A DNA stretch of 60,504 nucleotides from Pseudolactococcus hodotermopsidis (lineage in GTDB: Bacteria; Bacillota; Bacilli; Lactobacillales; Streptococcaceae). Location of the stretch: the NCBI RefSeq assembly GCF_011170085.1, contig NZ_BLLI01000005.1:1-60504 (forward strand), written 5' to 3'. Both the position numbers and the translations under genes were made by a program. The notes under the pieces are model-generated. The model did not search any database and had not been told where the DNA came from. It saw only the letters and a list, made by a program, of their open reading frames with translations. Shown piece after piece: positions 4,067 to 14,204 of this stretch; the first letter of the stretch is position 1, and each line of letters starts with the position of its first letter.

Positions 4067-4960
4067 TTAGTCGGAAAGCATTGTCAAATATGACTCTAGT
4101 CTCTCATCTACATATCCTGCAAATAATTTCTCCATAGCTGCTAGATTGTGTTTAACATGATAGTCATCAAAAGCTGTATAATAATTGACCCTATCAGTAA
4201 ACTTAATATCAATTGGCGGAAACCCTGCTTTCATCAACTCTAGGTTGACTAGCAATCGACCTGTTCTACCATTCCCATCAATAAATGGATGTATGCTTTC
4301 AAATTCAATATGAAATCGTGCCAACCGAGGAATAACATGTTCGTCACTCTCATGATATTTTTTCATTAACTGCTCCATACTTGGTGCAATCATATAAGGT
4401 TGAACAGGTTCATGTGCTGCTCCCATAATGCGTACAGGAACTTTTCGATAGATACCTCTATCTTCTTTCTTATCGGCCAAAACAAGATAATGAATTTGCT
4501 TGATGATACTTTCAGAAATTGGTGCATTTTCCTTCACTAAACTGCTAACAAATTCAAATGCTTCTTTATGACCAATCGCCTCCATATGGTCTTTTAACGG
4601 TTTCTTATCAATAGTGAGACCACGTAAAACCATATCTGTTTCACGAAGCGTTAAGGTATTCCCTTCAATCGCATTAGAATTATAAGTATATTCTACAATA
4701 AATTCTTCCGTCAACCTCTCTAATTCCCCTGAAGTTAGTGGACGTTTGGAATCAAGTTCACGTTTTTTTTCATCAATCTTTTTCAATTGATTCTCTTCTG
4801 ACTTGTACCTACCATCAGAAGGTTTTACAACATCATGAGGAATCTTCCAAGCACGTCCAAGTTGAATTGCACCAACTATTTTTCCTTCAGCACAAAGAAT
4901 CCTAACTCTTCTATCAGAAATCCCCCACTTCTCGGCGGCTTGTTTCACGGTAATATACAT
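4067..4960 (-). CDS. Fic-domain protein with N-terminal DNA-binding helix-turn-helix
   Basis: Fic enzymes transfer AMP or a related nucleotide part onto target proteins. The catalytic motif HPFIDGNGRTGR is intact at residues 224-235. SNAIEG at 95-100 matches the (S/T)xxxE(G/N) inhibitory helix that blocks ATP binding in the class with an N-terminal inhibitor, so the protein should be self-inhibited and need no separate antitoxin. Residues 1-47 (YITVKQAAEKWGISDRRVR) form an excisionase/MerR-like HTH. The ATG at 4960 has GGAGG 6 bp upstream and was preferred to one 21 bp earlier; this gives 297 residues. It sits between terL and portal remnants, so it is probably phage cargo. Target unknown. 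Confidence 0.88.
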   Translation of the reverse strand: MYITVKQAAEKWGISDRRVRILCAEGKIVGAIQLGRAWKIPHDVVKPSDGRYKSEENQLKKIDEKKRELDSKRPLTSGELERLTEEFIVEYTYNSNAIEGNTLTLRETDMVLRGLTIDKKPLKDHMEAIGHKEAFEFVSSLVKENAPISESIIKQIHYLVLADKKEDRGIYRKVPVRIMGAAHEPVQPYMIAPSMEQLMKKYHESDEHVIPRLARFHIEFESIHPFIDGNGRTGRLLVNLELMKAGFPPIDIKFTDRVNYYTAFDDYHVKHNLAAMEKLFAGYVDERLESYLTMLSD

Positions 4961-4983
4961 GGTATTCCTCCAATCTTTCACTA

Positions 4984-5060: not shown

Positions 5061-5239
5061 TTAAATCACAAATAGCCCTCTATCATCATAGACACTTGCG
5101 CCGTTATCATTGCCACATCTAATTGCTCTATCAAGTGCCATAATAGTCGCAATCGCACCGTCAATCTTCTCCGTGGACTTTTCTTTATCAGCTTTGATAT
5201 TTCCTGCGGGGTCAGTTCGGATGAAGATAGTAAAAAAAA
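5061..5239 (-). pseudogene. Phage terminase large subunit, C-terminal remnant
   Basis: A minus-strand reading frame of about 58 codons ends at TAA (5061-5063). It contains IRTDPAGNIKADKEKSTEKI followed by DGAIATIMALDRAIR and ends in VYDDRGLFVI, the conserved tail of HK97-type large terminases (KIDG.VA..MALDRA). The ATPase and most of the nuclease domain are gone. It touches the end of hsdR, so the junction with the restriction locus lies at about 5240. With the portal fragment it shows that the restriction locus was inserted into, or recombined with, a prophage. Confidence 0.8.
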
Positions 5240-8200
5240 TTAAATTTCAAATCCATCTTCGAGTATAAATTTTCTAAGCAATTCATTTACTTTCATGTTC
5301 ACCTGAAAAGGTTTAATTTTTTCTCCTTCTAACTTTTCAATAAACTTTCTAGCTTTCTCTTTATCAACTGTATTTATTAAATCGTCAAAACGTCCAAATT
5401 CATTGATATTACCTTCAGTAACTCTCAAATTCATCAAATTACGAAGCTTTTTTTCGTCAATACCCAACGCAGTGGATATGTTGTGAATCTGATCATTTTG
5501 AGATTTTGCTTGGTACTCATTGATATAATCTCGTAATGTTTTACTGGCATCTGGTGTCTCAGCGCCACTTTGAATATCGTGCAAGAAAATATTGGCATAT
5601 TTCTGTTCTTCTTGCGACAAAGTTGCAAAAGTTTTGTGTAGTTCATCCAATGCTCTTTGTGCCTCTTCAGAACCGATAACTTTCAAATACTTAGAAAATC
5701 TAGAATTCATATAATCTGCATCAATTAGACCAGTATCAATTTCATTAATATATCCATCCAAATCAAACGGAATATCGTCCCCACTAGGTCCACCTCCACC
5801 ACCTGGACGCGTTAATTCTTTATACCGCAAGACGAGAATCAAATAGGTTTTCTTATCTATTTCTAAAGTAACACTCGTTTTCGGTTTCCCAGAACCATGA
5901 GAAAACTCATATGTTAATTGTTCCCAAGTAAATCCTTGAACCTCTGCCGCTTCTAAAAGATCATTAAAATCTTTAAACAGACTGGCAAATTTCGCTTTTT
6001 CTTCCTGTTCATTAGGTAAGTTTTCAAAATTTTCGACACCAGCATTTTCAAACACCTCTTTAATTTCATGGTAAATTTGATTCATCTTAGTTAAGTTCTT
6101 TTCTAACTTGTCCACAAATAAATCAATAGGTTTATCGCCTGAATATAATTTGAGTGCCGCATCGACGTTTTTCTCCATAGTATTTGGTTTTCGATAATAA
6201 CGGATGGTGCCATGTGGCTTTTCTTTTCCAAACAAACGATTCGTTCGAGAAAAAGCTTGAATAATATTTTCATACTTCATCAATTTGTCTAAATAAAGGG
6301 TATTTATCCATTTTGAGTCAAACCCTGTAAGCATTTGGTCCACAACAATTAATAAGTCAATTTGTTTTTTTGGTTCACGTTCAATAAATTTATATTGAAA
6401 CTTGTGTGCCAAGCGATGAGAAATATCTTGTTTGAATTTTCCGTGAGTGCCAATTTCAAAACTTTGCCCATATCTCTTATTGTAATCTTCAATAATTTCA
6501 ACAAGACCATCTTCTTTATAAGCAACGTCACCACCATTATCAATGGTTGAATCAAATAATGCGGTCGTTTTTAAGTCAGGTTTTGCAATTTTTAATAACC
6601 GATAATATTTAATAGCTTCTGGAATACTGCTAGTTGCAAAAATAGCATGAAATTTCCCCGCTCGGCTCAAAGTCATCCAATTATTAACAATATCTTCGAC
6701 CACTTTTTTTTGATGTTCGCTACCCACATTAATTTTTGTTGGATCTATATATAATTTTTTTAAACCAGGATATTGCGTTTTTGGTAAATAATCTTCTATT
6801 CCCTTGTGATAAATACCTTTATCATCTTTGAAGCCTGCCATTTTTATTTTATCCATAAATTTATAAAACACTTCAGATTTGGCGGGGTCGCTAATCGCTT
6901 CTTCTTCATTTGTTGCTTTTGCTTCGTGAATTGCCACAACTTTACGAACTTCGTTATCTTTGAAAGTTGATACTTTACAAGGGTCAAAACCAAGAACGTT
7001 TTTATCCCTAATGCCATCAGCAATTGTGTATCGATGTAACTCGTCACCAAACACATCTGAGGTAGTGTTATGTTTTCGTTCATTTTCATCTTTTATTGGC
7101 GTCCCAGTAAATCCGAAAAAGATGGCCTCTGGAAATGTTCTTTTTATCGTTAACAGCATATCTCCAAAAGTAGAACGATGAGCTTCATCTATAATAAACG
7201 CCATTCGTTTTTTATTCATATTTTCAATATCTTTGGCATTCATCCCCCCCTCATCATCTTTAATATTACTCATTTTTTGAATCGACGTCACAAGCAACGT
7301 ATCAGCTGGATTTGAACTTTTAAGTTTCGTTTTTAGCACTGCGGTATTTTCAGTAGCTTGAACAGATTCATTTTCATCAGCAAATCCACGATATTCTCGC
7401 AGTGATTGTGTGCCAAGCTCAATTCTATCCATCAAAAAAATGACTTTATCCGCATCTTGTGAGTTTGCAATAAGCTGTGCCGATTTGAAACTTGTCATGG
7501 TTTTTCCAGAACCAGTTGTGTGCCAAATATAGCCACCACGTTGATTTTTCTCATCCCATTGAGTTTTAGAAACCTTATCAGAAATAGCATTTGCTGCATA
7601 ATATTGATAACTACGCATGACTTTTAAAATGCCATCCGTATCATCTGCGACAGTGTAAAAACCAATCAATTGATGAGCCATCGGAATCGAAAGCAAACTC
7701 GCTGCAATGTCTTTCCAATTTTTTACAATTTCATTGTTAAAGTCTTCCCAGTGGAAATAATAGTCTGGGTTAAACTTGTTATCTGGTCCTGGATTTGCGA
7801 AATATTTTGTTTCATTAGGTTCCATCGCAACAAATATCTGAACTAAAGAGAATAGCCCTGTAAAGATTCCTTCGCCCGCATATTTCTCGATTTGATTAGA
7901 TGCTTGGCTTACAGGAATACCGCTTCTTTTTAATTCAATATGGAATACAGGCATTCCGTTAATCAGAAGCATGACATCTCCTCGGCGATTATTAAGGATT
8001 TTAGACTTCGTTGGAAACTTAGGCTGTTGCGCAATTTGATATCTGCTCTGTCCAGCTGCTATCTCACGACGATCATAAATCTTTAGACTTACTTCTTTCC
8101 CAAAATGAAGTATATCTTCTGAATTATCTCGTTTTATCGAAATGGTCTTCCCGTTAATGAAACTGTTTAATTTTAACGGTGTGCGTAAATTATTGATTTG

Positions 8201-8407
8201 TTCAATAATTTGTGCCATTTCACCCGATGTTAAAGGCTGACCATTTAAACGGTCTAGCTCTTTATTATTGTCATATAAAATTTTCGCCCAATTATCGATT
8301 AATTCTTGTTCTGTCGGATTTTTTAGTACTTTTCTCTCCCAGCCTTTGGTAAATAGGAGGTTGATTAAAGCTTCTTCAAAATCAGATTCTTTTGTAAAAG
8401 TTGTCAT
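5240..8407 (-). CDS. hsdR: Type I restriction enzyme, restriction/translocation subunit HsdR
   Basis: The motor and nuclease subunit of a type I restriction-modification complex; it pulls DNA through the HsdM/HsdS core and cuts when translocation stalls. The nuclease signature is visible at D144, E158 and K160 (RRGDVMLL...FHIELKRSG). Walker A HTTGSGKT lies at ~296-303, DEAH at 407-410, followed by FTGTP and the rest of the SF2 helicase core. A glycine run near residue 865 leads into the C-terminal helical domain that docks on HsdM. The 1055-residue length is normal. It starts 12 bp after hsdS. Its only evident promoter is that of the upstream regulator-hsdM-hsdS unit, within the invertible segment. 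Confidence 0.95.
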   Translation of the reverse strand: MTTFTKESDFEEALINLLFTKGWERKVLKNPTEQELIDNWAKILYDNNKELDRLNGQPLTSGEMAQIIEQINNLRTPLKLNSFINGKTISIKRDNSEDILHFGKEVSLKIYDRREIAAGQSRYQIAQQPKFPTKSKILNNRRGDVMLLINGMPVFHIELKRSGIPVSQASNQIEKYAGEGIFTGLFSLVQIFVAMEPNETKYFANPGPDNKFNPDYYFHWEDFNNEIVKNWKDIAASLLSIPMAHQLIGFYTVADDTDGILKVMRSYQYYAANAISDKVSKTQWDEKNQRGGYIWHTTGSGKTMTSFKSAQLIANSQDADKVIFLMDRIELGTQSLREYRGFADENESVQATENTAVLKTKLKSSNPADTLLVTSIQKMSNIKDDEGGMNAKDIENMNKKRMAFIIDEAHRSTFGDMLLTIKRTFPEAIFFGFTGTPIKDENERKHNTTSDVFGDELHRYTIADGIRDKNVLGFDPCKVSTFKDNEVRKVVAIHEAKATNEEEAISDPAKSEVFYKFMDKIKMAGFKDDKGIYHKGIEDYLPKTQYPGLKKLYIDPTKINVGSEHQKKVVEDIVNNWMTLSRAGKFHAIFATSSIPEAIKYYRLLKIAKPDLKTTALFDSTIDNGGDVAYKEDGLVEIIEDYNKRYGQSFEIGTHGKFKQDISHRLAHKFQYKFIEREPKKQIDLLIVVDQMLTGFDSKWINTLYLDKLMKYENIIQAFSRTNRLFGKEKPHGTIRYYRKPNTMEKNVDAALKLYSGDKPIDLFVDKLEKNLTKMNQIYHEIKEVFENAGVENFENLPNEQEEKAKFASLFKDFNDLLEAAEVQGFTWEQLTYEFSHGSGKPKTSVTLEIDKKTYLILVLRYKELTRPGGGGGPSGDDIPFDLDGYINEIDTGLIDADYMNSRFSKYLKVIGSEEAQRALDELHKTFATLSQEEQKYANIFLHDIQSGAETPDASKTLRDYINEYQAKSQNDQIHNISTALGIDEKKLRNLMNLRVTEGNINEFGRFDDLINTVDKEKARKFIEKLEGEKIKPFQVNMKVNELLRKFILEDGFEI

Positions 8408-8419
8408 TATTTTTGTCTC

Positions 8420-9610
8420 CTAAATAAACATTTTTTCAAGCATAGCTTTTTTGATATTTTTTAACTTATCAAGCTCACGCTGATGAAGGGTAATAAGATT
8501 GTCGAGTTGTTTGAAAAAGATGCCGATTTTCGTTTGTTCTTCATAACTAGGTGTCTTAATCTTCAAATCAGATAGTATTTTCTTATTTAGCCCTCCACGA
8601 GTTCCATCGCCAGATGATGACATTCGAAGTTCGTCGTATCTATTACCCAAGTTCTGAAATACAAACTCATAATATAATGTTTCGTCGGGTTCGATTGCTG
8701 CGATTGACTGATTTGTTGTAAGCTGAACCTCGTTAACAGCGACTATTCCACGAGTTTTACCTTGACCCGCTAACGCAATCAAAATTGAATTTTCTTTCAC
8801 CCATCTTGCACTTGAATTATCCAAACCTACTTTTGAAATCATGTCATTGGTACCAGTTAATCTTTTTTTATTAACTTCCCCTGAAGACATCCAAGGTATT
8901 TCTTTTGGCTCCCAATATTCGGGCTTCTGAGTGCTAGGTGTTCCACCCGCAAGAATATTTGAATGGTCACCTAACTTCCGCTGTTCCCAAGCGTCAGTAA
9001 ACCCATCAAAGCGAACTTCGGGAAATTTTTCTCCTTTTTTCGGGAACATTTTTTCAAGCATAGCTTTTTTTATATTAACAGTCTTTTCATACTTACGCTG
9101 ATGAAGGGCGATGAGGTTGTCGAGGTCGGCAAAGAACACGCCAACGCGTTTCTGTTCATCAATGTTCAATGGGATATTGATGTCCAACTCGGTTAACATA
9201 TCCATAACGATGTAAGGAATATTCCCCGTTCTTGCTTCTTCTGATATTTTGCGTGGAAGTCTATTTCCGATTTCTGAATATAAGAAACTCCTATCGGCGC
9301 GAAAACCTGTTAAGACGTATGTACGTTGGTATGCGTTGAATTTGCCATCCGCCAAGTGCATATATCCAACCGTTGCCCCATTGCCCGCTATGGTTATTGC
9401 AGGGCCTTCAAATGCAGGAATGTCGATTCTATACTTCTTTATACCTGATGTATAAAAATCAAATTTGCCGTCTTCGACCATTGCATTTGCATCCAACTTT
9501 CCCGTTGTCACATCAACGAACTCACCCAACTTCCGCTGTTCCCAAGCAGTAGCATTTTCTCCATTAAATTCTTTGAAACGAATCTCTGGAATTTTCTTTT
9601 TTTCTTCCAT
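8420..9610 (-). CDS. hsdS: Type I restriction enzyme, specificity subunit HsdS
   Basis: HsdS carries two target recognition domains (TRD) that read the two halves of a bipartite DNA site. TRD1 (~residues 20-165) and TRD2 (~210-370) are each introduced by AWEQRKLG and followed by the repeated linker NIKKAMLEKMF, the helical repeat that holds the TRDs and binds two HsdM subunits. The ATG at 9610 with AAAGGTGA upstream is better than the GTG at 9619; it leaves 1 bp after the hsdM stop. The TRD2 half is duplicated exactly, in inverted orientation, at 12695-13219. The sequence specificity cannot be read off. Confidence 0.93.
   Translation of the reverse strand: MEEKKKIPEIRFKEFNGENATAWEQRKLGEFVDVTTGKLDANAMVEDGKFDFYTSGIKKYRIDIPAFEGPAITIAGNGATVGYMHLADGKFNAYQRTYVLTGFRADRSFLYSEIGNRLPRKISEEARTGNIPYIVMDMLTELDINIPLNIDEQKRVGVFFADLDNLIALHQRKYEKTVNIKKAMLEKMFPKKGEKFPEVRFDGFTDAWEQRKLGDHSNILAGGTPSTQKPEYWEPKEIPWMSSGEVNKKRLTGTNDMISKVGLDNSSARWVKENSILIALAGQGKTRGIVAVNEVQLTTNQSIAAIEPDETLYYEFVFQNLGNRYDELRMSSSGDGTRGGLNKKILSDLKIKTPSYEEQTKIGIFFKQLDNLITLHQRELDKLKNIKKAMLEKMFI
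8477..9001 (-). repeat. 525-bp inverted repeat, copy inside hsdS (TRD2)
   Basis: By reading both copies side by side I found this stretch identical to 12695-13219 on the opposite strand. It covers TRD2 from the codons for FTDAWEQRKLG to LHQR. The two arms enclose the 5' half of hsdS, hsdM and the regulator (about 3.7 kb). Confidence 0.9.
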
Positions 9611-9611
9611 A

Positions 9612-12371
9612 CTACTCACCTTTAATCAGCGATTGAAATTCGCTAAGTCCTTTTATATCAAAGTCAGATCCATCAAGTTCTCCAATCATCTGAATCAATG
9701 ACTGTTCGACTTTTACTAATTCATCCGTAACATCCGCATATGTTACGGCATATTTATCGGTAAGCTCTGCAATTTCGCTAACTAATTTATTCAAAACAGT
9801 ATCTGGCAACTCGCTAATGCCATTAACAATAGGTGAAATCCACTTTTGTGATAATAATGCGCTTGCTTCATCATCTGACAGTGATTCAATAACCACCTTT
9901 GTTTTTAAATGAAGTTCGTTATCTGCTTTTTTCACTTCTGCTTTTATTCGCTTTTCTTCAGCCATTAAGTCTGAAACTATTACAACTTTAGCCTCAAAGC
10001 TATCCTCGGGGAAAGAGAATTTTGCTTGCAGTTGTTTCAGATAGGCATTAACTTTTGCTTTTGCATAGGTCTTATCTTTTTTGGATTCAATATGATGCCA
10101 TGCAACTTCGGTATGTTGCGCAATAAAATCTAGTTGTTCTGCCTTTTTAGCCTTTGCATCTAATAAACGACTATAAGCATTAAGTCCATCAATTTCAAGA
10201 TTAGACACTTCTGAATAAATTTCTTTAATTTGCTTATTCACCTCTGCAGTCACAAATGCGTCGTTTGAATCGTTTAGAATGCTTGAATCTTTTTCTTCTT
10301 CACTAAATGATTCAATGATTTCACTGTATTCATTGACAATTTCCAACAAACGATTTTGTTTCTCGGTCAATTTCAATAACTCTTCAGATAAAAGAGATTT
10401 CTGAACTAAGTCAAAAGGTAAGATATGTCCAATAAAACCGTCTTGAACTTCAGTATCTTTTCCATCTTTCTTCTTAATGACGATGTTTTCATCAACTTTT
10501 TTCACAGCCCCAAAACCTTCTGTTTGAATCATTTCAAGATCAATAGATATAATTTGCCATTCGTCATCTAGCACTTGATATGCTTGATATTTATCAACTA
10601 ACGGTGTCCCATTCAAGCTATCGAAAATATAATGACTTAACCTTGTTTCTTCTTGTGGTATTTTCACTTTGGTTGACTCATCAATAAGTTCTAGAACTAG
10701 GTATTCCCGCAACCCTTTAAACGCATTTTTATAATTTGATGTAAAAGATTTCACTTGTTTATTTGCAAGAATAGCTTGTTTCACGTTATCAACTTTAACT
10801 GTTACATAAGGCGAGCCATTGTCTTCAAATAAAGCTTGTTTTAAGTTAGGAAATGCTTCCCAATATCCGTTAAGACGATTAATTTCAGATTTTGGTATGC
10901 CACCAAACATGGTCGCATAAATATCCCATGATTCATTTGCTTCAGCTGAATCAATATACCGTGGAATATTTAAATTGTAGTCATTTTCTCGAATTTCATT
11001 TTTAGTTACCACTCGTGAATATTTTTCAATCTTTTCTCTATTTATAACCGTATCGACGATTTTTTTAATGTCGGATGCTTGTAATTTATTATTTTTCCCT
11101 TCTTTGATAAAGCCTTTTGAAGCATCAACGATCAGTACATCATCATTTTCTCGTTGTTGTTTGAGAACCAGAATAATAGTCGGGATGCTAGTACCAAAGA
11201 AAATATTTGCTGGGAGGCCAATAATTGCATCAATTTTATCTTTTTCAATTAGATTTTTCCGAATTTCTCCTTCTTCCCCACCACGAAACAGAACGCCATG
11301 AGGCAAAACGATCGTCATGATACCATTTGATTTAATATGAAATAAATCATGAAGCAGGAAAGCGTAATCTGCTTTTGTTTTAGGCGCAAGACCGTATTCT
11401 GCATAACGTGGATCATTGTCTTTATTTGAAGGGTCCCATTTTTGAGAATACGGTGGATTTGAAACAACGGCATCCACATATAAAGGGTCATAAGTATTTA
11501 CTGGATCATTATCATCAAAGAATGGCCAATCTTCTTCTAAGGTATCGCCATTTCTAGTCATAATATTATCAGGTAAAACCCCACGCATCACTAGATTCAT
11601 ACGAGTCAAATTATAAGTATTCCCTTTCAACTCTTGCGCGTAATACTTAATATTGTTTTCATCATTAATATGTTTAGCAACAGATTGACCAATATTAATT
11701 AGTAATGAACCCGAGCCACTCGTTGGATCATAAATTTTTATTTCATCACGATCCTTAACGTGATTTGCAACAATTTCTGACATCAATAATGAGACTTCAT
11801 GAGGCGTATAGAACTCTCCCGCCTTTTTACCAGCATTTGCGGCAAACATACTGATTAGGTATTCATAAATAAAACCGAGAACATCATAGTCCTGTTTACC
11901 ATTCATTGGAATTACCTTAATAAGTTGAATCAAACTACTTATTGCTTTGGTTTGTGAAGCAGCAGAATCACCTAACTTGGTTAATCCAGTTTCTAAAGTA
12001 GTAAAAATTCCATCAAAAACCTTCTTATGGCTTGAATTAATCAAACGACTAAAAGCAGATAATGCATCATGTACATCAGATACATTAAAGTCTATCCCTT
12101 TTTCAATCCATGTAGAAAACAAATTATCATATGAAATGAAATAACCAATATTTTGTTGGATAAATTTCACCTGTTCTTCATCTTCTTCGGTTAAATTTTT
12201 GATGTCCTCTTCATCGTAATCATTTTCCTTTAAAAAACGGACTTCCTTATCTGAAAGGAATTTATAAAAAACAAATCCTAAAATATAATCCTTATATTCG
12301 TTGGCCTCAATTTTTGAACGCATTTCATTTGCTGAAGCCCATATTTTTGATGCTAATTGCTGTTTGTTCAT
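9612..12371 (-). CDS. hsdM: Type I restriction enzyme, modification subunit HsdM
   Basis: The DNA adenine-N6 methyltransferase subunit. The N-terminal HsdM_N helical domain is followed by the SAM-binding motif DPTSGSGSLL at 215-224 and the catalytic NPPY at 305-308. GEFYTPHEVSLLM (~185-197) is the usual type I signature. At 919 residues it is much longer than a typical ~520-residue HsdM: a C-terminal extension from about residue 520 onward is helical and charged, with likely coiled coils near 690-830. Long HsdM proteins of this kind occur with some Gram-positive type I systems; the role of the tail is not known to me. GGAGGAAAG precedes the ATG. Confidence 0.94.
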   Translation of the reverse strand: MNKQQLASKIWASANEMRSKIEANEYKDYILGFVFYKFLSDKEVRFLKENDYDEEDIKNLTEEDEEQVKFIQQNIGYFISYDNLFSTWIEKGIDFNVSDVHDALSAFSRLINSSHKKVFDGIFTTLETGLTKLGDSAASQTKAISSLIQLIKVIPMNGKQDYDVLGFIYEYLISMFAANAGKKAGEFYTPHEVSLLMSEIVANHVKDRDEIKIYDPTSGSGSLLINIGQSVAKHINDENNIKYYAQELKGNTYNLTRMNLVMRGVLPDNIMTRNGDTLEEDWPFFDDNDPVNTYDPLYVDAVVSNPPYSQKWDPSNKDNDPRYAEYGLAPKTKADYAFLLHDLFHIKSNGIMTIVLPHGVLFRGGEEGEIRKNLIEKDKIDAIIGLPANIFFGTSIPTIILVLKQQRENDDVLIVDASKGFIKEGKNNKLQASDIKKIVDTVINREKIEKYSRVVTKNEIRENDYNLNIPRYIDSAEANESWDIYATMFGGIPKSEINRLNGYWEAFPNLKQALFEDNGSPYVTVKVDNVKQAILANKQVKSFTSNYKNAFKGLREYLVLELIDESTKVKIPQEETRLSHYIFDSLNGTPLVDKYQAYQVLDDEWQIISIDLEMIQTEGFGAVKKVDENIVIKKKDGKDTEVQDGFIGHILPFDLVQKSLLSEELLKLTEKQNRLLEIVNEYSEIIESFSEEEKDSSILNDSNDAFVTAEVNKQIKEIYSEVSNLEIDGLNAYSRLLDAKAKKAEQLDFIAQHTEVAWHHIESKKDKTYAKAKVNAYLKQLQAKFSFPEDSFEAKVVIVSDLMAEEKRIKAEVKKADNELHLKTKVVIESLSDDEASALLSQKWISPIVNGISELPDTVLNKLVSEIAELTDKYAVTYADVTDELVKVEQSLIQMIGELDGSDFDIKGLSEFQSLIKGE

Positions 12372-12393
12372 AGCTATTGCTTTCCTCCAATTG

Positions 12394-12609
12394 TTACTTT
12401 TCTTCTGATTTCTTAATTTCTATAATATCTCCAATATCAACTTCCAAGACTAAACAGATTTTCACCAATGTTTCTAACGACACAGTTTCATCTCGTCCCA
12501 TCTTTGCAATGATATTCGTGCTGATATTTGCTTCGTCCTTCAACTGAGTTTTGTTCATCCCTTTATCAATAAGAATTTTCCAAAGCTTATTATAGCAAAT
12601 CGGTATCAT
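12394..12609 (-). CDS. Cro/CI-type (XRE) regulator of the restriction locus
   Basis: A 71-residue single-domain HTH protein (NKTQLKDEANISTNIIAKMG is the helix-turn-helix). Small XRE regulators of this YozG-like type are often the first gene of type I restriction operons, where they are thought to delay or damp expression. It is 22 bp upstream of hsdM and shares its promoter. The ATG at 12609 is preceded by AAGGAGCTGACT. Confidence 0.85.
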   Translation of the reverse strand: MIPICYNKLWKILIDKGMNKTQLKDEANISTNIIAKMGRDETVSLETLVKICLVLEVDIGDIIEIKKSEEK

Positions 12610-12647
12610 CTAGTCAGCTCCTTCTATAAAACTACAAATACCATTAT

Positions 12648-12656
12648 ATTATATCA
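12648..12656 (-). promoter_or_regulatory. Extended -10 promoter of the regulator-hsdM-hsdS-hsdR unit
   Basis: On the minus strand TGATATAAT (TGN followed by TATAAT) lies about 38 bp before the regulator ATG. No good -35 box is visible. It sits between the two arms of the 525-bp inverted repeat, so it would turn together with hsdM if the segment inverted. Confidence 0.6.
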
Positions 12657-12694
12657 CGAAACATCAAGAAATAATACCATCTAAATCATCTTTT

Positions 12695-13219
12695 TTTACT
12701 GACGCTTGGGAACAGCGGAAGTTAGGTGACCATTCAAATATTCTTGCGGGTGGAACACCTAGCACTCAGAAGCCCGAATATTGGGAGCCAAAAGAAATAC
12801 CTTGGATGTCTTCAGGGGAAGTTAATAAAAAAAGATTAACTGGTACCAATGACATGATTTCAAAAGTAGGTTTGGATAATTCAAGTGCAAGATGGGTGAA
12901 AGAAAATTCAATTTTGATTGCGTTAGCGGGTCAAGGTAAAACTCGTGGAATAGTCGCTGTTAACGAGGTTCAGCTTACAACAAATCAGTCAATCGCAGCA
13001 ATCGAACCCGACGAAACATTATATTATGAGTTTGTATTTCAGAACTTGGGTAATAGATACGACGAACTTCGAATGTCATCATCTGGCGATGGAACTCGTG
13101 GAGGGCTAAATAAGAAAATACTATCTGATTTGAAGATTAAGACACCTAGTTATGAAGAACAAACGAAAATCGGCATCTTTTTCAAACAACTCGACAATCT
13201 TATTACCCTTCATCAGCGT
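12695..13219 (+). repeat. 525-bp inverted repeat, silent-cassette copy
   Basis: Partner of 8477-9001 on the minus strand, identical over its length by direct reading. The left edge contains the 26-bp segment starting GCTTGGGAACAGCGGAAGTT, which also begins TRD1 (9522-9547, one mismatch) and TRD2 (8967-8992) of hsdS, giving several possible crossover sites. Confidence 0.9.
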
Positions 13220-13243
13220 AAGTATGTTTATAATAATGAATAG
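12695..13243 (+). pseudogene. Silent hsdS cassette (one TRD, no start, no C-terminal helix)
   Basis: In frame from FTDAWEQRKLG through the whole TRD2 sequence of hsdS to LHQR, then KYVYNNE and a stop. The DNA 12695-13219 is identical to the TRD2 half of hsdS on the other strand. It lacks an initiating region and the C-terminal helical repeat, so it is unlikely to act alone; an internal ATG at 12806 is not a real start. Its right edge CTTCATCAGCGTAAGTATG (13208-13226) matches the end of TRD1 in hsdS, not of TRD2, so it is a chimera left by recombination. It stands next to a tyrosine recombinase, the usual setting of phase-variable type I systems. Confidence 0.88.
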
Positions 13244-13268
13244 TTTATAATAATGGATAGTTTATAAG
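13227..13268. repeat. 17-bp tandem repeat between silent cassette and recombinase gene
   Basis: TTTATAATAATGAATAG (13227-13243) is followed by TTTATAATAATGGATAG (13244-13260) and a third partial copy TTTATAAG. The repeat lies at the edge of the silent cassette and just before the recombinase ribosome binding site. It may bind the recombinase or form its promoter region (several TATAAT-like boxes); this is inference. Confidence 0.7.
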
Positions 13269-13283
13269 AAAGGAATGAATTAC

Positions 13284-14204
13284 ATGAACAACCAAGAATT
13301 TTTACACACCTACTTCAAAAAATGGGTAGCAACCTACAAAGTCGGCGCAATCCGAGATGTAACCATGACGAAATATCAAATGAGCCATCATTGGTTGCAA
13401 CAACTTGTGCCGAATCTTAAGCTTTGTGAGGTAACACGTTTATCCTATCAAGGACTACTAAACGACTATTCCCAATTCCATGAACGAATAACAACGATGG
13501 ATTTTCACCATCACGTCAAAGCAGCTATCTTGGATGCCGTTGACGAAGGGCTCATCGATCGAGATCCCACCCGACGTGCAATCATCAAAGGAAAACCACC
13601 ACGCCCAAAGAAAAGCAAATTTCTCAACCAGTTTGAATTACAATCTTTAATTAGCCATTTAAATCTAAAAGAAGAGATAAATTGGGACTGGCTTATCTTA
13701 TTAATCGCAAAAACTGGGCTCCGTTTTTCTGAAGCACTCGGTCTTACACCTAGCGATTTCGATTTTGCTAGACAGACCATCTCTATCAACAAAACTTGGG
13801 ATTACAAAAAAAATGGTGGATTTCAACCTACTAAGAACAAATCTTCCGTTAGAAAAGTGTCGCTTGATTGGATGACCGCTATTCAGTTTGTAGGGCTAAT
13901 TAAGGATAGACCTATCGACCAACCTATCTTCGTAAGAGAAGGGCAAAAAATTTACAATTCAACACCTAATGGCATTCTGGCTCGTCACTGCAAATCTCTA
14001 GGCATTACCATTATTTCAATCCATGGTTTGCGACATACACACGCTTCATTGCTTCTTTTTGCTGGCGTCTCAATCGCCAGCGTATCAAGGCGACTTGGTC
14101 ACTCTAGCATGAGTACTACGCAAAACACATATCTTCATGTTATTCAAGAATTAGAAAATCAAGATACAGACATAGTAATGCGGTGTTTAGCTAATCTTCA
14201 ATAA
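13284..14204 (+). CDS. Tyrosine recombinase linked to the type I restriction locus
   Basis: A 306-residue site-specific recombinase. The N-terminal SAM-like core-binding domain (~1-110) is followed by the catalytic domain with Arg in TGLRFSEALG, His-x-x-Arg in HGLRHTHASLL, His in RRLGHSSMSTT and the nucleophile Tyr in QNTYLHV. All key residues are present. The ATG at 13284 lies about 10 bp after AGAAAGG and was preferred to one 9 bp upstream. Its place beside an inverted, silent hsdS cassette suggests an hsdS-shuffling invertase; a prophage integrase is the alternative, since phage remnants lie in the same island. Confidence 0.88.
   Translation: MNNQEFLHTYFKKWVATYKVGAIRDVTMTKYQMSHHWLQQLVPNLKLCEVTRLSYQGLLNDYSQFHERITTMDFHHHVKAAILDAVDEGLIDRDPTRRAIIKGKPPRPKKSKFLNQFELQSLISHLNLKEEINWDWLILLIAKTGLRFSEALGLTPSDFDFARQTISINKTWDYKKNGGFQPTKNKSSVRKVSLDWMTAIQFVGLIKDRPIDQPIFVREGQKIYNSTPNGILARHCKSLGITIISIHGLRHTHASLLLFAGVSIASVSRRLGHSSMSTTQNTYLHVIQELENQDTDIVMRCLANLQ

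What the first reader, a model, noticed from the sequence alone, without database searches (positions are those of the whole stretch)
8477..13219. A 525-bp perfect inverted repeat could flip regulator-hsdM-hsdS away from hsdR
TRD2 of hsdS (8477-9001) and the silent cassette (12695-13219) are identical and inverted. The segment between holds the operon promoter, regulator, hsdM and the 5' half of hsdS, but not hsdR. Inversion would place hsdMS on the plus strand with a shorter HsdS C-terminus (KYVYNNE) and leave hsdR without that promoter. This predicts a switch between restricting and modify-only states, different from the usual specificity switch.
Basis: partly seen in the sequence, partly recalled or inferred. 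Interest (0 to 1): 0.75.

Follow-up and report, generated by a model that had tools for sequence, protein, structure and literature searches.

The report
Copied specificity cassette in restriction-modification locus
A bacterial DNA-defence locus keeps a silent spare copy of one of its target-recognition pieces next to a DNA-shuffling enzyme; the copy is a perfect mirror-image repeat, most likely left by cassette copying that changes target specificity, though it could also occasionally flip the genes away from the cutting enzyme.

Summary

Comparison with 125 other loci shows a recurrent kind of type I R-M locus with silent single-TRD cassettes running from x (TTGGGAACAGCG) to y (CTTCATCAGCG), both nearly fixed at synonymous positions. 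Near-perfect silent/expressed duplicates recur. Seven blocks at six loci, window included, all begin at x and end at y; four are inverted and three direct. So the repeat is a copied cassette, not evidently kept for flipping.

Inversion remains feasible. L124 looks like a natural product splitting the operon at x sites; E. gilvus has hsdM with a C-truncated hsdS and no hsdR found on its plasmid. But hsdR is on hsdM's strand in 15 of 16 loci, window included, where a flip would put them on opposite strands, and flipped HsdS would lose its C-terminal helix. Best reading: recombinase-linked specificity-cassette switching; the restricting/modify-only switch is a possible side state, unproven.

The parts
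5240..8407 (-). hsdR, 1055 aa, EcoR124_C-type C-terminus
   Evidence: HSDR_N, SWI2_SNF2, EcoR124_C; TIGR00348
8420..9619 (-). expressed hsdS, 399 aa, two TRDs and two conserved helices
   Evidence: Methylase_S, 2 stretches; matches 1yf2
8477..9001 (-). inverted-repeat arm 1 = TRD2 of hsdS (x2 to y2)
8420..8476 (-). hsdS 3' end coding ELDKLKNIKKAMLEKMFI plus stop, the C-terminal helix absent from the silent cassette
9522..9547 (-). site x1, start of TRD1; 25 of 26 (96%) identical to x2 and to the cassette's x
   Evidence: D2, I3
9612..12371 (-). hsdM, 919 aa, N6_Mtase
12394..12609 (-). small HTH_26 (Cro/C1-type) regulator, 71 aa
12610..12694 (-). operon upstream region with an extended -10 (TGATATAAT, starting at 12656 on the - strand); promoter inferred
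   Evidence: the consensus scan of 12300-13400 found 2 promoter-like sites against 4.3 expected
12695..13243 (+). silent single-TRD cassette; 12695-13219 is arm 2; frame ends KYVYNNE, no C-terminal helix
13275..14204 (+). tyrosine recombinase, 309 aa (Phage_integrase family); R, HxxR, H and Y of the family seem present (motif recalled, read by eye)

Best explanation
This is a recombinase-associated, phase-variable type I R-M locus of a single-TRD-cassette kind. The silent cassette is a one-TRD archive running from site x (TTGGGAACAGCG, start of a TRD) to site y (CTTCATCAGCG, end of a TRD). The adjacent tyrosine recombinase, acting at x and probably y, with or without homologous recombination, moves or copies cassettes between the archive and the two TRD slots of hsdS and so changes DNA specificity. 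The perfect 525-bp repeat is the footprint of a recent cassette copying event (archive to TRD2 or the reverse), by gene conversion or by cassette exchange between sister chromosomes. While both copies are identical, a single inversion would not change TRD2. It would move promoter-regulator-hsdM-hsdS to the recombinase side, give a C-truncated HsdS and strand hsdR: a possible, probably rare or transient by-product. Shown: anatomy, conserved edges, recurrence of cassette-sized duplicates in both orientations, one natural split configuration. Inferred: recombinase action at these sites, copying as the cause, expression states.
For: Recombinase beside the cassette; relatives in 85 of 395 order genomes and 30 of 335 family genomes at E<=1e-90, own genome included; 98 of the 100 recombinase loci fetched hold an hsdS-type TRD within about 10 kb. 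Edge codons against TRD interiors, in truncated cassettes whose edges fit the residue pattern (68 x, 51 y): y-Leu CTT 51/51 against 18%, y-Gln CAG 46/51 against 26%, x-Gln CAG 50/59 against 26%, T before TGG 66/68. The core of the pneumococcal CreX-dependent repeat, ATTATGGGAA (passage of PMC6620402), shares TGGGAA with x. Silent/expressed duplicates of 99% or more recur: L100 (both TRD slots, 523/523 and 511/511), L108 510/510, L129 519/520, L037 497/499, L188 531/535, and L095. In 7 of 7 blocks examined TTGGGAAC starts at block position 3-13 and the block ends 1-6 nt after CA(G/A)CG; L095 was not in that check. Direct and inverted duplicates both occur. Such a pair is in 5 of 38 class-2 and 0 of 48 class-1 loci, Fisher p=0.014; without the window 4 of 37, p=0.033.
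Against: No reads or experiments; copying direction unknown. Conservative inversion alone makes no duplicates, so an extra step must be assumed. The loci are related, the p values are weak, and the class rule was made after seeing the loci. In class 1, L122 (96.5%) and L163 (91.6%) have less similar silent/expressed pairs and L131 has TRD1 almost equal to TRD2. The exact pneumococcal 15-mer, or two copies of its 10-mer core, is in none of the loci scanned, so use of x by this recombinase is not shown. No different TRD is left in this genome, so switching here could at present only put this TRD into slot 1.
Confidence: 0.7

Rival explanations
1. One reading: inversion at the 525-bp repeat is an evolved switch between restricting (hsdM-hsdS-hsdR) and modify-only (hsdM-hsdS*, hsdR silent) states.
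For: Geometry and in-silico inversion; recombinase adjacent. L124 looks like an inversion product at x sites: hsdR, hsdS leader, truncated TRD and recombinase on one strand, headless TRD1-TRD2 and hsdM on the other. E. gilvus keeps open frames for hsdM (74% identical) and a C-truncated hsdS, with no hsdR match on its 919-kb plasmid. M. pulmonis hsdS rearrangements can abolish R-M activity (passage of PMC4948785).
Against: hsdR shares hsdM's strand in 15 of 16 comparable loci. Flipped HsdS loses the C-terminal helix. The same duplicates occur in direct orientation. L124 leaves hsdR with the operon head and disconnects hsdM, the opposite of a modify-only state. The E. gilvus recombinase is a remnant, and the hsdR search there had no positive control.
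Confidence: 0.1
2. Inversion at x, then at y, is a two-step cassette exchange whose intermediate lacks hsdR and co-expresses the recombinase.
For: Flipping puts the recombinase gene 31 nt behind hsdS; in L124 the recombinase lies just behind the truncated hsdS cassette. In S. [quoted passage not shown]
Against: Does not by itself yield identical copies; no intermediate seen in this species.
Confidence: 0.12
3. The perfect repeat, or the orientation of the middle segment, is an artefact of assembling a mixed population.
For: Draft of 138 contigs; the repeat may exceed read length.
Against: Similar duplicates in assemblies given as one or two contigs (G281, G579, G027); a majority consensus of conservative exchange should not give duplicates (reasoning).
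Confidence: 0.08

Closest known systems
S. suis SsuCC20p phase-variable type I R-M (PMC10790761; sections 6 and 11 and passages read)
   Same: [quoted passage not shown] recombinase required
   Different: Its repeats are the 14-mers TAAATCATCATTTA/TAAATGATGATTTA; exact matches in my loci are one each in L182 and L188, about 9 kb from their cassettes. Here the silent and expressed TRDs are identical and hsdM lies inside the interval
S. pneumoniae SpnIII / cod locus with PsrA/CreX (passages of PMC4948785, PMC7096588, PMC6620402, PMC12324116 read)
   Same: hsdS TRD exchange with a tyrosine recombinase; hsdSB is a 553-bp TRD-sized cassette; site core shares TGGGAA; strain G54 has a TRD duplication
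   Different: Inversions run among the hsdS genes, hsdR and hsdM not moved; repeats of 15, 85 and about 300 bp
S. pneumoniae SpnIV tvr (passages of PMC6265443 read)
   Same: TRD-encoding sequences shuffled with recombinase TvrR
   Different: Excision and reintegration of a circle through direct repeats
Mycoplasma pulmonis hsd loci (one passage in PMC4948785 read; original papers not held, layout recalled)
   Same: hsdS inversions by a tyrosine recombinase, some abolishing R-M activity; recalled: hsdM and hsdR lie between inverted hsdS genes
   Different: Two full hsdS genes flank the pair (recalled); recombinase HvsR; a Mollicute

Membership tests
Type I restriction-modification system | hsdR, hsdM and hsdS with their domains, adjoining on one strand | tested here: met
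Recombinase-associated phase-variable type I R-M (PsrA/CreX/XerD kind) | Tyrosine recombinase gene in the locus | tested here: met
   identity to PsrA/CreX itself not measured
Recombinase-associated phase-variable type I R-M (PsrA/CreX/XerD kind) | Silent hsdS or TRD sequence in inverted orientation | tested here: met
Recombinase-associated phase-variable type I R-M (PsrA/CreX/XerD kind) | Silent TRD differs from the expressed one, so that recombination changes specificity | tested here: not met
   525/525 identical to TRD2; no other TRD over the cut-off in the genome. It does differ from TRD1, so a move to slot 1 would change specificity. Membership is therefore claimed for architecture, not for present switching
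Recombinase-associated phase-variable type I R-M (PsrA/CreX/XerD kind) | Mixed orientations or alleles in a population | not testable with these tools
   no reads; one genome per species
Recombinase-associated phase-variable type I R-M (PsrA/CreX/XerD kind) | Short recombinase site at the TRD edge | tested here: inconclusive
   TGGGAA shared with the pneumococcal core and nucleotide-level conservation; exact pneumococcal 15-mer, or two copies of its 10-mer, in no locus scanned
SpnIV tvr excision-reintegration kind | Silent TRDs in direct orientation relative to the expressed hsdS | tested here: not met
   cassette inverted
Restriction on/off (modify-only) inversion switch | Flipped state present or common in related loci | tested here: inconclusive
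   15 of 16 on one strand; L124 split, L022 without hsdR

The most novel reading that the evidence does not exclude
Specificity is changed through a safe intermediate: one inversion at x puts hsdM, a re-specified hsdS and the recombinase gene under the operon promoter while disconnecting hsdR, so new sites can be methylated before a second recombination at y restores hsdR. The locus geometry itself would provide restriction alleviation, and the perfect repeat would record an inter-sister cassette exchange.
Probability: 0.12. Interest if true: 0.75.

Novelty: new variant of a known kind. Interest (0 to 1): 0.45.

Why it matters
In the recombinase-linked pneumococcal system, hsdR and hsdM stay put. 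Here, in 17 of 38 class-2 loci an inverted silent cassette encloses hsdM or hsdR, against 1 of 48 class-1 loci. That raises a testable question: how does a cell change type I specificity without cutting its own unmodified genome? Seven cassette-sized duplicates with edges at two conserved sites, in both orientations, suggest that TRDs are copied between archive and expression slots, not only flipped.

Tried and rejected
Other TRDs in the same genome as hidden switch partners: none over the cut-off. Promoter for hsdR inside the stationary part: 2 promoter-like sites in 8300-9700 against 3.9 expected, neither between hsdR and arm 1; only weak 8-of-12 sites; such scans cannot exclude one. Plasmid search with TRD2: 155 records match, none with one place covering 80% of it. 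L. salivarius plasmids as a within-species test of orientation: of 42 such records I opened six; two carry a half-length hsdS and in the other four the recombinase lies by other genes, mostly adhesin-type, so they could not serve. The S. suis 14-bp repeat and the pneumococcal 15-mer as general sites: rejected. Five paper searches listed 30 of 65, 15 of 64, 15 of 30, 15 of 24 and 12 of 14 papers; in the titles and abstract beginnings shown I saw none on an invertible segment that holds hsdM but not hsdR. This is not proof that none is in print. The binomial figure for 36 of 37 printed is not used: in most of those loci a flip would not separate hsdM from hsdR.

Rows dropped: L021 (same contig as L119) from the tallies. 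The 38 + 48 loci need hsdM next to a two-TRD hsdS and, except L022, a recombinase; 30 loci with a TRD domain are left out (listed), among them L037 and L095, which have duplicates, and L183, an odd state. Hits of L018, L133 and L149 (302-356 bp) come, by their coordinates, from overlapping flanks of adjoining fragments and are not counted. 14 places were not fetched (second or weaker matches: G225, G298, G012, G180 and G285 one each, G252 two, and G373, G028, G247, G324, G297, G155, G352).

Full report
Observation. The two arms are a perfect 525-bp inverted repeat at the coordinates given. The repeat finder extends it to 528 across one mismatch. Between them lie 3,693 bp with the operon upstream region, a small HTH regulator, hsdM and the 5' part of hsdS; hsdR lies outside, 12 nt downstream of hsdS. 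The genome is a 2.30-Mb draft in 138 contigs, the window being the whole of contig C5, so the real orientation of the middle is not established.

What the arms are. Arm 1 is TRD2 of hsdS. Arm 2 is a single-TRD cassette with no leader and no C-terminal conserved helix; its frame ends LHQRKYVYNNE. I mapped hsdR, hsdM, TRD domains and recombinases in the window and 125 other loci, two of which (L021, L119) are one contig. Of the 115 loci with TRD domains, 58 hold at least one truncated TRD domain ('class 2') and 57 none ('class 1'). The truncated cassettes typically begin at codons for W-E-Q-R-K and end just after L-H-Q-R, with departures such as ANQR or no match.

The edges are conserved as DNA. 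In truncated cassettes whose edges fit the residue pattern (68 x, 51 y sites), synonymous positions are nearly fixed. At y: Leu CTT 51/51 against 18% in TRD interiors, His CAT 51/51 against 75%, Gln CAG 46/51 against 26%. At x: Gln CAG 50/59 against 26%, Glu GAA 56/60 against 76%, and T in 66/68 before TGG. Domains with the helix show the same trend, less strictly at y-Gln (98/140) and before TGG (164/219). The core given for the pneumococcal repeats, ATTATGGGAA, needed with CreX for the 15-bp repeat (passages of PMC6620402), shares TGGGAA with x. The exact 15-mer, or two copies of the 10-mer, was found in none of my loci, so x as this recombinase's site is inference.

The repeat is a copied cassette. 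Silent/expressed TRD pairs of at least 99% DNA identity over about 500 bp occur in the window, L100 (both slots), L108, L129, L037, L188 and L095. Seven blocks at six loci (window, L037, L100 twice, L108, L129, L188) were checked for edges: in all seven TTGGGAAC starts at block position 3-13 and the block ends 1-6 nt after CA(G/A)CG of y. Four are inverted (window, one of L100, L129, L188) and three direct (L037, one of L100, L108). Direct duplicates cannot serve inversion, so the duplication needs another cause: gene conversion, or exchange of cassettes between sister chromosomes at x and y (inference). Among loci with hsdM next to a two-TRD hsdS, 5 of 38 class-2 and 0 of 48 class-1 loci have such a pair (Fisher p=0.014); without the window, which prompted the search, 4 of 37 (p=0.033). 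The loci are related and the class rule was made after looking, so this is suggestive only. Against it stand L122 and L163 in class 1, with silent/expressed pairs of 96.5% and 91.6%, and L131, whose two expressed TRDs are nearly equal.

Would it flip? In-silico inversion gives hsdM-hsdS(388 aa)-recombinase on the + strand, the regulator ahead of them, and hsdR behind a 156-aa hsdS remnant. In the 40 class-1 loci whose inverted interval holds only the recombinase gene, that gene is co-directional with hsdM in 22 and opposite in 18, as free inversion would give. In class 2, an inverted silent cassette encloses hsdM or hsdR, never both, in 17 of 38 loci, so that a flip would put hsdM and hsdR on opposite strands. 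L022 has no hsdR; of the other 16, window included, 15 have both on one strand. If both states were equally likely and the loci independent, 15 or more of 16 would have probability 17/65,536; neither condition is assured.

Two exceptions matter. L124 has hsdR, an hsdS leader, a truncated TRD and the recombinase on one strand, and a headless TRD1-TRD2 frame with hsdM on the other; the headless frame starts close before an x site and the leader joins the cassette at an x site. The other 14 class-2 loci of hsdS-hsdM order have hsdR on hsdM's strand. I read L124 as a natural inversion product, though one that disconnects hsdM rather than hsdR; it is an 11-kb contig of a draft, and no unflipped relative of the same species was compared. 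E. gilvus (L022; hsdM 74% identical) has the order hsdS-hsdM-regulator-inverted cassette, but its hsdS lacks the C-terminal helix, a recombinase remnant abuts it, and no hsdR match was found on the 919-kb plasmid (no positive control, chromosome not searched).

What the flipped protein would do is open. The solved S subunit 1yf2 aligns through the C-terminal helix, and such helices pair in antiparallel (passages of the review PMC3874165). The same review reports an EcoR124I HsdS that lacks about 160 C-terminal residues and stayed active, with a palindromic specificity from its first TRD. So the flipped state could be modify-only with the old motif, modify with a new motif, or inactive. Expressed hsdS keeps the helix in 37 of 38 class-2 and 47 of 48 class-1 loci.

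Known systems. SpnIII/cod and SsuCC20p exchange TRDs with a recombinase; the SsuCC20p authors describe two concurrent inversions or TRDs switching place and leave the mechanism open (sections 6 and 11 of PMC10790761). SpnIV uses excision-reintegration (passages of PMC6265443). M. pulmonis hsdS rearrangements can abolish R-M activity (passage of PMC4948785; original papers not held). A REBASE survey of inverted-repeat hsdS loci is PMC7394358 (passages). A TRD duplication is on record in pneumococcal strain G54 (passage of PMC6620402), so duplicated TRDs as such are not new. The window is a variant of this known kind. Unusual here: the silent and expressed TRDs are identical, and hsdM with the upstream region lies inside the interval; hsdM also lies inside in L014, L022, L025, L093, L184 and, with a full-length silent hsdS, L122.

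Verdict. The repeat is real and the flip possible, but the best-supported reading is cassette copying in a specificity-switching locus.

Noticed in passing
L201 6950-7847 and 8929-9826: On an L. salivarius plasmid the same recombinase family sits beside GbpC/Spa and isopeptide-forming adhesin genes that share an 898-bp, 99.7% inverted repeat; a possible invertible adhesin. GbpC/Spa-type genes also lie by the recombinase in L198 and L199, where no repeat of 100 bp or more over 88% was found.
   Followed up: partly
L100 4562-5084 with 8958-9480; 5182-5692 with 10436-10946: Both TRDs of the expressed hsdS are perfect copies of two silent cassettes, one direct and one inverted.
   Followed up: yes
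L014, L025, L027, L143, L144, L150, L157, L173: Head-to-head TRD cassettes whose starts lie only some 7-51 bp apart by the domain coordinates; role of the short gap unknown.
   Followed up: no
L183: hsdM followed by leader plus one truncated TRD, then an inverted TRD with helix, a truncated cassette and hsdR: another odd arrangement.
   Followed up: no
L095: Four copies of nearly the same TRD, three in tandem before the recombinase gene and one next to hsdM.
   Followed up: partly
4067-4981 (-): Fic-family protein with an N-terminal HTH_17 domain just downstream of hsdR.
   Followed up: no
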